Shown: piece after piece, positions 12,750 through 14,758 of the stretch
Position numbering within the stretch: the first letter of the stretch is position 1
Layout: every line of letters begins with the position of its first letter
DNA from: Candidatus Gastranaerophilales bacterium
GTDB taxonomy: Bacteria > Cyanobacteriota > Vampirovibrionia > Gastranaerophilales > Gastranaerophilaceae
Direction of reading: 5' to 3'
NCBI GenBank assembly: GCA_944323995.1
Contig: CALUUN010000014.1
Span: 1 to 32,685 of the forward strand
DNA: 32,685 bases
Notes under the pieces: model-generated
Told to the model about the DNA's origin: nothing
The model's database searches: none
What the model saw: the letters and a program-made list of their open reading frames with translations, nothing else
Program-made: the position numbers and the translations under genes

Positions 12750-14414
12750 TTAAATTCTTTCTTCTATGGATTCCAACTTTTTATTAATTTCAATTATTTG
12801 ATTTTTGAGTTTTTGATTTTCGATTTTAAGTTTTTTATTTTCGTTTTCCAGAGAATTTATGCGTACTTCAATTTTGCTAATTTTTTGTAATACAATTTTT
12901 AATTCGTTAATTATCCCTTGAACAAAGCTGTCGAGTTCTTTTACCGCATTAACAAGTGTATATGTTATAAAATCCTTATTCAAATACAAAAAACCGTCCG
13001 GTGATTTTGTAACAGCGTCAGGAATAATTTTTTGCATATCTTGTGCCATGACACCTATTCTGTTACCTGATTTTTTATCTTTTTTCCAGGTAAAATCATA
13101 AACCTTCATCTCACGGATTTTGTCAAGTCCGTATTTGTTTTCGCCCTTGATGTTTTTTAATCTTTTGTCTGAAGTTTGTACAACTTCAACAGCCTGTATT
13201 ATACCGCCTGCAACAAGTTTGTTCGGAACAAATACAATGTTTTCGGTATTGCCGTTATATCCGGATAATCTGTCACATGCCTGATATCCGATGCATGTTT
13301 TATTTGAACCGACTCTCCATAAACTGCTGTAGGCTCCTATAGCGATATTATTTTCACTTATATAACCATTATACTCACTTGTTCCGGTTCCTGCTTTATA
13401 ACCTATGGCTATGTTGTTATTTCCGCCGCCCATTCTTTCTATTGCCTGTGCTCCTATGGCAATGTTGCCGGAGCCGCCAACTTCTTCCCAGCCGAACTGT
13501 TCATACATTGTATTTCTTCCGATTGCAATATTATCTTCATGTCCTACAGTACCTTTTGATAATGCACCAACTCCGAGAGCAATATTATAGCGCCCATTAC
13601 TGTCTGAAAGGGGAGCAGTGTAACCGTCACCAGAGCCAATAGCTATATTCCCAATATTTGATTCAGAACTGTTGTTCGCAAAATTTGCGATAATTCCGAT
13701 ATTACCGCTGCCTTGTATGCCTGCTAACGCCTGCTCTCCTATCCCGATATTACCGTTGCCGCTGGACGATGCTAACGCCAGCTCTCCTATTCCGATATTA
13801 CCTCCGTCACTTGCAGTTTCGTTCATACTCTGATAACCGATGGCAACATTTGAATAATTTGTTAATTTGTTGCCGGCCTGGTAGCCTATGGCAATATTTC
13901 CTCCGGCGGTGATTGAGCCGGACAGCGCTTCATCACCAATGGCAACATTATGCCGTGAAGTTGTTTCACTTGCTAAACTGTTGTGTCCAACTGCAACGTT
14001 GCCGATACCTGTAGTCATGCTGTGCATTGCTCCTATACCGAAAGCGGTATTATTCTGTCCGGTTAAGTTTGTATAATTGTCTCTGCTGCCTAAAAATAAG
14101 CTGTCAGTTGTGGCTTTTAAAGCGCCTAGTATGGTATTTTTGTTTTTGAATAAAATATGATTTTGATTTGTGTTATCTGTATTAAGAGTTAATCTGTTAG
14201 AGGGATCAGTACTGCTTTTACTGTTTTGGCCAATCATTGCACTTTGTTCGCTCGCGAGTCCGTAATATATATCGGAGTTGTTGCTTGCAAAACGCCACGG
14301 ACTGCTCAGGTCAACACTTTTTCTCTTTGTCATGAACGGTGCAAATGCGGCAAGCAATATGGTTAGTATCAGCATTACAACCATCATTTCCGCAAGAGTA
14401 AATCCTTTTTTCAT
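12750..14414 (-). CDS. Prepilin-anchored fibre: YadA-head-like repeats plus peptidase S74 chaperone
   Basis: The 554-residue protein is a three-part chimera. Residues 1-30 are a type IV prepilin leader and helix (MKKGFTLAEMMVVMLILTI, Gly before the cleavage site, Glu at mature position 5). Residues about 122-394 hold some 16 copies of an N(I/V)AIG-type unit with a period of 16-22 residues, as in YadA/trimeric-autotransporter heads and some phage fibres. The C-terminus has VVQTSDKRLKNI, DFTWKKDK and RIGVMAQDMQKIIPDAV, the S74 intramolecular chaperone of phage tail spikes, followed by a long coiled coil. By family knowledge self-cleavage would fall between Ser415 and Asp416, freeing 139 residues. 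GAGG precedes this ATG; another ATG lies at 14426. A trimeric surface or pilus-associated fibre is inferred. Confidence 0.88.
   Translation of the reverse strand: MKKGFTLAEMMVVMLILTILLAAFAPFMTKRKSVDLSSPWRFASNNSDIYYGLASEQSAMIGQNSKSSTDPSNRLTLNTDNTNQNHILFKNKNTILGALKATTDSLFLGSRDNYTNLTGQNNTAFGIGAMHSMTTGIGNVAVGHNSLASETTSRHNVAIGDEALSGSITAGGNIAIGYQAGNKLTNYSNVAIGYQSMNETASDGGNIGIGELALASSSGNGNIGIGEQALAGIQGSGNIGIIANFANNSSESNIGNIAIGSGDGYTAPLSDSNGRYNIALGVGALSKGTVGHEDNIAIGRNTMYEQFGWEEVGGSGNIAIGAQAIERMGGGNNNIAIGYKAGTGTSEYNGYISENNIAIGAYSSLWRVGSNKTCIGYQACDRLSGYNGNTENIVFVPNKLVAGGIIQAVEVVQTSDKRLKNIKGENKYGLDKIREMKVYDFTWKKDKKSGNRIGVMAQDMQKIIPDAVTKSPDGFLYLNKDFITYTLVNAVKELDSFVQGIINELKIVLQKISKIEVRINSLENENKKLKIENQKLKNQIIEINKKLESIEERI
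13233..14051 (-). repeat. Degenerate tandem repeats coding for the N(I/V)AIG head
   Basis: About 16 imperfect units of roughly 48-66 bases code for the beta-roll motif. Unit starts are spaced 17, 17, 17, 16, 17, 16, 16, 18, 21, 18, 22, 17, 22, 16 and 20 codons apart. The repeats have diverged at nucleotide level but share phrases for NIAIG and GYQ. Copy number may change by recombination. Confidence 0.85.
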
Positions 14415-14433
14415 CCTTATCCTCATTTCTATA

Positions 14434-14491
14434 TGTCATATATGTCAATATTATGATGTATATGACAAAAAATGTCAAGATTTAACATAAT
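14434..14491 (+). promoter_or_regulatory. Promoter with TGTCA boxes before the HTH gene at 14519
   Basis: ATGACA (14462-14467), an 18-base spacer and CATAAT (14486-14491) make a fair promoter for the HTH gene. TGTCATATA (14434-14442) and its complement TATATGACA (14459-14467) form an inverted repeat that includes the -35, and TGTCA recurs at 14443-14447 and 14473-14477. This looks like an operator in the gap between the divergent HTH and fibre genes. Confidence 0.5.
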
Positions 14492-14518: not shown

Positions 14519-14758
14519 ATGCAGAAAAATAAGATTAAGGAACGGATAAAGGCTCTTTTTGTCTGGCGTGACGTGACCATTACCGCATTTGCTGCATATA
14601 TGTCAAAAAAGTTTGGCAAAAATTATTCGCAATCAAGCCTATCGCATAAACTTGCGCGCGGCACTATTTCCTTTAAAGCGGTTTTGGAGATAGCTGATAT
14701 TTTGGGTTATGATGTTGTGTTCAAGCCGCGTAAAGATTGGGAGGAATTTAAAATTTAA
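14519..14758 (+). CDS. Small HTH-like protein
   Basis: The 79-residue protein has a consensus GGAGG ribosome site. Its order of elements (RIKALFVWRDVTITAFAAYM, QSSLSHKLARGTISFKAVL, IADILGYDVVFKPRK) is that of a short lambda-repressor-like HTH ending in a beta strand, and it is a paralogue of the protein at 520-747. It is divergent from the fibre gene across a 104-base gap with TGTCA repeats, so it may regulate itself and the fibre. It lies 53 bases before leuS, but leuS seems to have its own promoter. Confidence 0.75.
   Translation: MQKNKIKERIKALFVWRDVTITAFAAYMSKKFGKNYSQSSLSHKLARGTISFKAVLEIADILGYDVVFKPRKDWEEFKI

What the first reader, a model, noticed from the sequence alone, without database searches (positions are those of the whole stretch)
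12750..14414. Prepilin signal fused to a YadA-head-like repeat fibre and a self-cleaving S74 chaperone
One ORF joins three parts not normally combined: a type IV prepilin leader and helix (GFTLAEMM), about 16 N(I/V)AIG beta-roll units, and a phage-tail-spike peptidase S74 domain with the Ser-Asp site (TSDKRLK) plus a terminal coiled coil. S74 domains trimerise fibres and then cut themselves off. With a prepilin N-terminus this predicts a trimeric fibre held in the inner membrane or carried by a pilus or pseudopilus, a possible new class of pilus-associated adhesin in this lineage. Autotransporter heads need a beta-barrel anchor, and none is present here.
Basis: partly seen in the sequence, partly recalled or inferred. 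Interest (0 to 1): 0.75.

Follow-up and report, generated by a model that had tools for sequence, protein, structure and literature searches.

The report
Pilus-type anchor carrying phage-like trimeric fibre
A gut relative of cyanobacteria makes a surface fibre whose base is a type IV pilus anchor and whose end is built like a phage tail fibre; the fusion is real, conserved and probably an adhesin, but this domain pairing had already been listed in a 2021 survey.

Summary
Window 12750-14426 (-) is one intact ORF (558 aa): prepilin leader and helix (N_methyl, E 6e-7), a YadA-type beta-roll head of about 15 rungs, and a Peptidase_S74/ICA domain (E 7e-14) with the Ser-Lys dyad (S419, K424) and a coiled coil. 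It is no assembly fusion: 60 of 62 complete S74 ORFs in relatives start as prepilins and 86 of 90 keep the dyad. At the same chromosomal place in other species the helix stays 90% identical while the head falls to 31-38%.

Best reading: a trimeric modular type IV pilin. S74 acts as a trimerisation chaperone that cuts itself off, leaving a YadA-like head on prepilin helices for display by the genome's type IV pilus machine. Trimerisation, cleavage and tip position are inferred.

The pairing is not new: Raynaud et al. 2021 (PMC8179133) list prepilin+S74 among the 15 commonest modular-pilin architectures. New here: the chaperone reading, the YadA head, the lineage distribution, and clusters of three S74-prepilins. 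Side finding: 86 prepilin matches and two prepilin-targeting diversity-generating retroelements in this 1.75-Mb genome.

The parts
12750..14426 (-). S74 modular prepilin gene (558 aa from ATG 14426; 554 aa from the likelier ATG 14414)
14403..14426 (-). class III prepilin leader, M(RIRM)KKG, cut expected between G8 and F9 by prepilin peptidase
   Evidence: N_methyl hit; G/A-1 F1 E5 conserved in 29-row alignment; peptidase gene at G000:C5:16329
14322..14402 (-). N-terminal transmembrane / pilin alpha1-N helix, aa 9-35
   Evidence: AlphaFold helices; 90% identical between positional orthologues
14103..14321 (-). linker and base region aa 36-108 (PWR..NNSDIYYGL..AMIGQ), conserved in the family, no pilin-fold domain recognised
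   Evidence: alignments A2 and A3; low-confidence model
13221..14102 (-). YadA/BpaC-type beta-roll head, about 15 rungs, aa 109-402
12927..13172 (-). Peptidase_S74 / ICA trimerisation chaperone, aa 419-500
13155..13172 (-). SDxxxK motif with dyad Ser419 (13170-13172) and Lys424 (13155-13157)
   Evidence: invariant in the alignments; 86 of 90 ORFs; equals MyRF S587/K592 and endoNF S911/K916 (PMC8326128)
12753..12977 (-). C-terminal coiled-coil helix, aa 484-558
   Evidence: AlphaFold helix 484-557; coiled-coil PDB matches
14450..14478 (-). promoter-like TTGACA-17-CATAAT (11 of 12) upstream of the gene
   Evidence: consensus match only
14434..14467 (.). inverted repeat TGTCATATATGTCA / TGATGTATATGACA overlapping that promoter, possible operator

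Best explanation
A trimeric, self-processing modular type IV pilin that most likely works as an adhesin. (1) The prepilin is inserted in the inner membrane through its N-terminal helix; the rest faces the periplasm (inferred from the class III leader). (2) The C-terminal S74/ICA domain with its coiled coil brings three chains together and seeds folding of the beta-roll head (inferred from S74 homology and conservation). (3) The trimerised S74 cuts itself at the Ser-Lys dyad and leaves as a fragment of about 140 aa; the head stays on the anchor because the anchor is N-terminal of the cut (topology shown, cleavage inferred). (4) Prepilin peptidase removes the leader and the single type IV pilus machine takes the three-helix base into a filament, most simply at its tip, as for CofB/TcpB (inferred). 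(5) The variable head binds a surface or ligand in the gut (inferred).
For: All three modules are detected by independent methods. The fusion is conserved: 60 of 62 complete S74 ORFs in relatives start as prepilins. In a scan of named genomes, 58 of 64 S74 ORFs whose start could be judged carry the prepilin motif and 3 more begin inside the prepilin helix (one further pattern hit, L263, was false and is not counted). None of 70 uncut S74 ORFs at viral loci is a true prepilin; two pattern hits are internal motifs. The dyad is invariant in both alignments and present in 86 of 90 ORFs. Machinery is present: PilB, PilC and one secretin in one operon, a prepilin peptidase, further T2SSE ATPases as PilT candidates. 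All 35 S74-positive relatives have a secretin, though so do the S74-negative ones. Positional orthologues keep the helix at 90% while the head falls to 31-38%, between flanking genes that stay 64-93% identical (LeuS, RluA, LspA 84-93%), and head length varies, as expected of an exposed binding fibre. In two other families S74-prepilins sit in tight operons with another prepilin, like minor-pilin operons. Precedents: trimeric tip minor pilins TcpB/CofB (PMC9565799); S74 fibres of a cellular bacterium with demonstrated S74 cleavage (PMC10769870).
Against: No trimer, cleavage or pilus localisation has been shown. Only the alpha1-N helix of a pilin is present; neither model shows a pilin globular domain, so incorporation into a filament is less certain than for modular pilins such as PilB of S. 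sanguinis. The S74 region is poorly modelled as a monomer (pLDDT about 37-50 for much of 400-460). Whether a trimeric beta-roll passes the secretin was not tested. Four of 90 family ORFs lack the dyad lysine by the pattern used.
Confidence: 0.62

Rival explanations
1. Inner-membrane-anchored trimeric periplasmic protein: the prepilin helix serves only as a processed membrane anchor, and the fibre never enters a pilus.
For: No pilin globular domain is recognisable after the helix. In the window's genome the gene is not next to pilus genes.
Against: The conserved leader with E5, typical of assembled pilins; fast, length-variable head evolution fits outside exposure; tight operons with another prepilin in f6 and f7.
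Confidence: 0.18
2. Heteromeric pilus-tip complex: where three S74-prepilins lie together they form a 1:1:1 heterotrimer through their S74 domains, comparable to GspI-J-K.
For: Three S74-prepilins in tandem plus one non-S74 prepilin in f7 (two genomes) and f6 (G045, G048; in G040 three S74 genes, in G051 the cluster is cut by the contig end). In genus g8, 13 of the 16 S74-positive genomes listed carry exactly three S74 genes and three carry four; they are clustered in the one read in full. The f7 trio forms one clade, so triplication looks lineage-specific.
Against: Known S74 domains make homotrimers. The window's genome has two unlinked copies and other genomes one to twelve, so trios are not general. 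The tree rests on 103 columns.
Confidence: 0.12
3. Phage-derived remnant: a tail-fibre gene captured from a prophage with no host function.
For: Head plus S74 resembles phage tail fibres (PHROG hits; BFVD hits).
Against: No phage genes among the annotated neighbours; housekeeping neighbours (lspA, leuS, mur genes) at the same place in three species. GC 0.387 equals the window's. Dyad and prepilin leader kept across families, which decay would not do.
Confidence: 0.04
4. Protease acting on other proteins: S74 works in trans, as the 2021 survey's wording 'peptidase activity' could suggest.
For: Pfam name Peptidase_S74; PMC8179133 groups it under predicted peptidases.
Against: In the studied S74/ICA proteins cleavage is of the protein itself and needs the trimer (PMC8326128, PMC10769870). 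The domain follows a trimeric-adhesin-type head, as chaperones of phage fibres do.
Confidence: 0.03

Closest known systems
Modular type IV pilins (Raynaud et al. 2021, PMC8179133), architecture IPR012902-IPR030392
   Same: Prepilin N-terminus fused to a non-pilin module; exactly the prepilin + S74 pair was counted among the 15 most frequent architectures.
   Different: No pilin globular module recognised here; additional YadA-type head; S74 read here as an in-cis trimerisation chaperone rather than a working peptidase module. Whether these lineages were in that survey's dataset could not be checked.
CofB (ETEC CFA/III) and TcpB (V. cholerae TCP) trimeric tip minor pilins (PMC9565799)
   Same: Prepilin helix followed by a trimeric beta-rich body; predicted tip position.
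   Different: CofB/TcpB have a pilin domain and other folds; no S74 domain or YadA head is described for them.
MAT fibres of Bdellovibrio bacteriovorus (PMC10769870)
   Same: Cellular, phage-like trimeric fibres, 13 of them ending in S74 with SDxxxK; self-cleavage shown for Bd3182; multigene family with diverse tips.
   Different: They start with a signal peptide and a conserved beta-rich N-terminal domain, not a prepilin; the solved tips are beta-helical.
YadA/BpaC trimeric autotransporter heads
   Same: Beta-roll of N(I/V)AIG rungs (1p9h E 2e-5; BpaC 7o23 Z 12.2).
   Different: No autotransporter beta-barrel anchor; rung motifs mostly 16-22 residues apart; S74 chaperone at the C-terminus.
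Phage tail fibres/spikes with ICA domain (endosialidase, T5 pb1) and MyRF
   Same: C-terminal ICA domain, Ser-Lys dyad, coiled coil.
   Different: The anchor is a prepilin helix N-terminal of the head. In MyRF the membrane segment lies on the other side of the cut, so cleavage frees the N-terminal part; here it can free only the chaperone.

Membership tests
Type IV (modular) pilin | class III leader: short basic stretch, G/A at -1, F1, E5 | tested here: met
   N_methyl E 5.7e-7; motif conserved
Type IV (modular) pilin | uninterrupted hydrophobic alpha1-N helix | tested here: met
   helix 11-34 in the model
Type IV (modular) pilin | pilin globular (alpha-beta) module after the helix | tested here: inconclusive
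   none seen in two AlphaFold models, but confidence there is low
Type IV (modular) pilin | pilus assembly machine and prepilin peptidase in the genome | tested here: met
Type IV (modular) pilin | incorporation into a filament | not testable with these tools
   needs microscopy or proteomics
Peptidase_S74 / ICA chaperone | domain over curated cut-off near the C-terminus | tested here: met
   52.2 bits against 22; MyRF 7dc3 E 9e-8 by profile
Peptidase_S74 / ICA chaperone | Ser-Lys catalytic dyad SDxxxK | tested here: met
   S419/K424; 86 of 90 relatives
Peptidase_S74 / ICA chaperone | trimerisation and self-cleavage | not testable with these tools
   only single-chain models can be made here
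YadA-type trimeric autotransporter adhesin | beta-roll head of NxAIG rungs | tested here: met
YadA-type trimeric autotransporter adhesin | C-terminal outer-membrane beta-barrel anchor domain | tested here: not met
   the C-terminus is S74 plus a helix; no anchor domain in the Pfam output, so it is not filed as a trimeric autotransporter
CofB/TcpB trimeric tip minor pilin | sequence or fold similarity of the ectodomain | tested here: inconclusive
   no CofB/TcpB or the rows, but only 33 chains were compared there
Bdellovibrio MAT fibre | signal peptide plus conserved N-terminal beta domain of about 130 aa | tested here: not met
   the N-terminus is a prepilin

The most novel reading that the evidence does not exclude
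A distinct lineage-wide class of pilus adhesin in which the pilin is reduced to its anchoring helix, a phage-type ICA chaperone replaces the autotransporter barrel as the means of making trimeric YadA-type heads, and, where three such genes lie together, the chaperones assemble a heterotrimeric pilus tip.
Probability: 0.15. Interest if true: 0.75.

Novelty: new variant of a known kind. Interest (0 to 1): 0.5.

Why it matters
If right, it shows how a bacterium can present trimeric adhesin heads without an autotransporter barrel: a type IV pilus carries them, and a phage-type chaperone folds them and leaves. It gives a testable reason for S74 domains on pilins, which the 2021 survey left as a possible peptidase. 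It also points to type IV pili as a main surface interface of Gastranaerophilales, gut bacteria known here mostly from metagenomes, many of whose genomes devote dozens of genes to prepilins.

Tried and rejected
Assembly-made fusion: rejected by conservation across genera and families. Assignment as a trimeric autotransporter: rejected, no anchor domain. MyRF-like release of the functional part by cleavage: rejected on topology, since the anchor is N-terminal and only the chaperone can leave. Phage origin of the whole gene: no prepilin fusion among the S74 ORFs of the 80 viral loci; two pattern hits were internal motifs without a leader. S74-prepilin as a target of the retroelements: no template match. 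A 'fourth prepilin' next to the g8 trio was a false pattern hit; it is an MFS transporter. Ancient orthology of the three trio members: not supported, the f7 trio groups together. Foldseek against PDB gave nothing significant; the head assignment rests on the profile search and the second-look aligner. The genome contigs list kept only the best 80 of 419 relatives, so distribution outside the phylum was not assessed; S74 genes of photosynthetic cyanobacteria were not checked for prepilin starts. The survey's supplementary dataset could not be opened.

Full report
What is there. Window 12750-14426 on the minus strand is one intact ORF of 558 aa. Pfam finds N_methyl at aa 4-27 and Peptidase_S74 at aa 419-473, both above their curated cut-offs. 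The likelier start is Met5 (14414), preceded by GAGG at six bases, and the strongest promoter-like match of the region, TTGACA-17-CATAAT, lies just upstream at 14478-14450. The GC content of 0.387 equals that of the window.

Head. Pfam did not report YadA_head at E<1. Thirteen strict N(I/V/T)(A/G)hG motifs occur against a shuffle mean of 0.065, mostly 16-22 residues apart. A profile of 29 relatives finds the YadA head 1p9h (E 2e-5), MyRF ICA 7dc3 (9e-8), a phage tail fibre 8jov (2.5e-6) and, weakly, the pilin PilE1 (0.016) among PDB sequences. The AlphaFold monomer (mean pLDDT 67) has about 15 evenly spaced rungs, a single N-terminal helix 11-34, and a long C-terminal helix; S74 itself is not confidently modelled as a single chain. 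Second-look alignment ranks trimeric-autotransporter heads first (BpaC Z 12.2; YadA Z 10.0 at rmsd 2.4) and includes the MyRF ICA domain at Z 4.4. Z values of that size should be read with care for repeats, but the sequence profile agrees independently.

Conservation. The window's genome has a second S74-prepilin (G000:C1:163233). S74 occurs in 35 of 59 relatives and 85 of 291 genomes of the phylum. Of 90 distinct S74 ORFs extracted, 62 have complete 5' ends. 57 match the prepilin pattern directly; three more have it upstream of, or further inside, a mis-called start. Of the other two, one is a remnant without its N-terminus and one belongs to another family. SDxxxK is kept in 86 of 90. In MyRF the equivalent Ser and Lys are each essential and the cut lies before the serine (PMC8326128). 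A scan of named species genomes returned Gastranaerophilales and related or unassigned MAGs as the best 80 of 419 relatives; 58 of 64 S74 ORFs that could be judged carry the prepilin motif, and three more start inside the prepilin helix. S74 ORFs at 80 viral-contig loci (25-45% identity) have no prepilin leader.

Evolution in place. The gene lies between leuS and the block sec-lspA-rluA-lapA. The same arrangement holds in two other species (L199/L036 and L213), where LeuS is 92-93%, RluA 89%, LspA 84%, LapA 70-71% and the secreted protein 64-65% identical. The S74-prepilin's helix is 90% identical there, its head 31-38% and S74 52-55%. The second locus, near glmU, shows the same trend with 2 to 26 rung motifs. 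Strong anchor conservation with a fast, length-variable head is what a surface-exposed binding fibre would show.

Pilus machine. One operon holds PilC, PilB and the only secretin; a prepilin peptidase and further T2SSE ATPases are elsewhere. All 59 relatives searched have a secretin, including every S74-positive one. In family f7 four prepilin genes are tandem: three with S74 and one without. The same 3+1 arrangement is found in two f6 genomes (G045, G048), three S74 genes in tandem in a third (G040), and a contig-cut cluster in a fourth. In genus g8, 13 of 16 S74-positive genomes listed have exactly three S74 genes. The f7 trio forms one clade, so the sets of three look like separate triplications (103 columns only).

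Mechanism. Shown by sequence: topology (anchor, head, chaperone, coil), conserved leader, conserved dyad, complete core machine. Inferred: trimerisation, cleavage in cis, loss of a chaperone fragment of about 140 aa, assembly at the pilus tip, adhesion. The main weakness is the lack of a recognisable pilin globular domain, which leaves an inner-membrane-only role possible.

What is known. [quoted passage not shown] Trimeric tip minor pilins exist (TcpB, CofB; PMC9565799), and S74-processed cellular fibres exist (Bdellovibrio MAT; PMC10769870). Type IV pilus genes have been reported in a termite-gut Gastranaerophilales genome (PMC5877343). The present case combines these ideas; it is a new variant, not a new kind.

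Side finding. The genome has 86 N_methyl matches, with 41 prepilins in one similarity cluster. Two reverse transcriptases sit beside Avd-like genes and template repeats that match the 3' ends of 15 and 7 dispersed prepilins. Mismatches fall on template adenines: 301 of 686 A against 77 of 1303 other bases for the first template (one weak, non-terminal hit included in that count), and 124 of 266 against 25 of 736 for the second. This is the signature of diversity-generating retroelements acting on prepilins. The S74-prepilins are not among their targets. A 2019 paper mentions putative pilin structures among retroelement targets (PMC6642488), so the principle is not new, but the scale here merits its own study.

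Noticed in passing
G000:C19 (L152:1-3691) and G000:C8 (L185:1318-3009); window:1-138 carries a truncated member of the target family: Two diversity-generating retroelements (RT, Avd-like gene, template repeat) whose templates match the C-terminal ends of 15 and 7 dispersed prepilins, with mismatches concentrated on template adenines (44-47% of A against 3-6% of other bases).
   Followed up: partly
whole genome G000; relatives: 86 prepilin-type N_methyl matches in a 1.75-Mb genome with one secretin and one PilC; many relatives have 60-111, others under 20.
   Followed up: partly
L052, L053 (f7), L054-L057 (f6), L047 (g8): Clusters of three S74-prepilin genes, in f7 and f6 in a tight operon with a fourth prepilin lacking S74; a possible heteromeric pilus-tip complex.
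   Followed up: partly
window:14434-14467 and ORF 14519-14758 (+): An inverted repeat overlaps the S74-prepilin promoter and lies next to a divergent 79-aa ORF with a weak DUF6471/HTH match; similar sequence sits at the same place in L036/L199. Possible dedicated regulator.
   Followed up: partly
window:28064-29446 (-): A second MshEN + partial T2SSE ATPase (PilB-like, 460 aa) outside the main pilus operon.
   Followed up: no
window:5194-5934 (-): Another prepilin (246 aa) in the same window.
   Followed up: no
window:11780-12709 (-): Secreted-looking 309-aa protein without any family match, conserved (64-65%) between the S74-prepilin and lspA in three species.
   Followed up: no
G035, G105, G317: Some genomes carry 11-12 S74 genes, several at contig ends, suggesting recent amplification and repeat-broken assemblies.
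   Followed up: no
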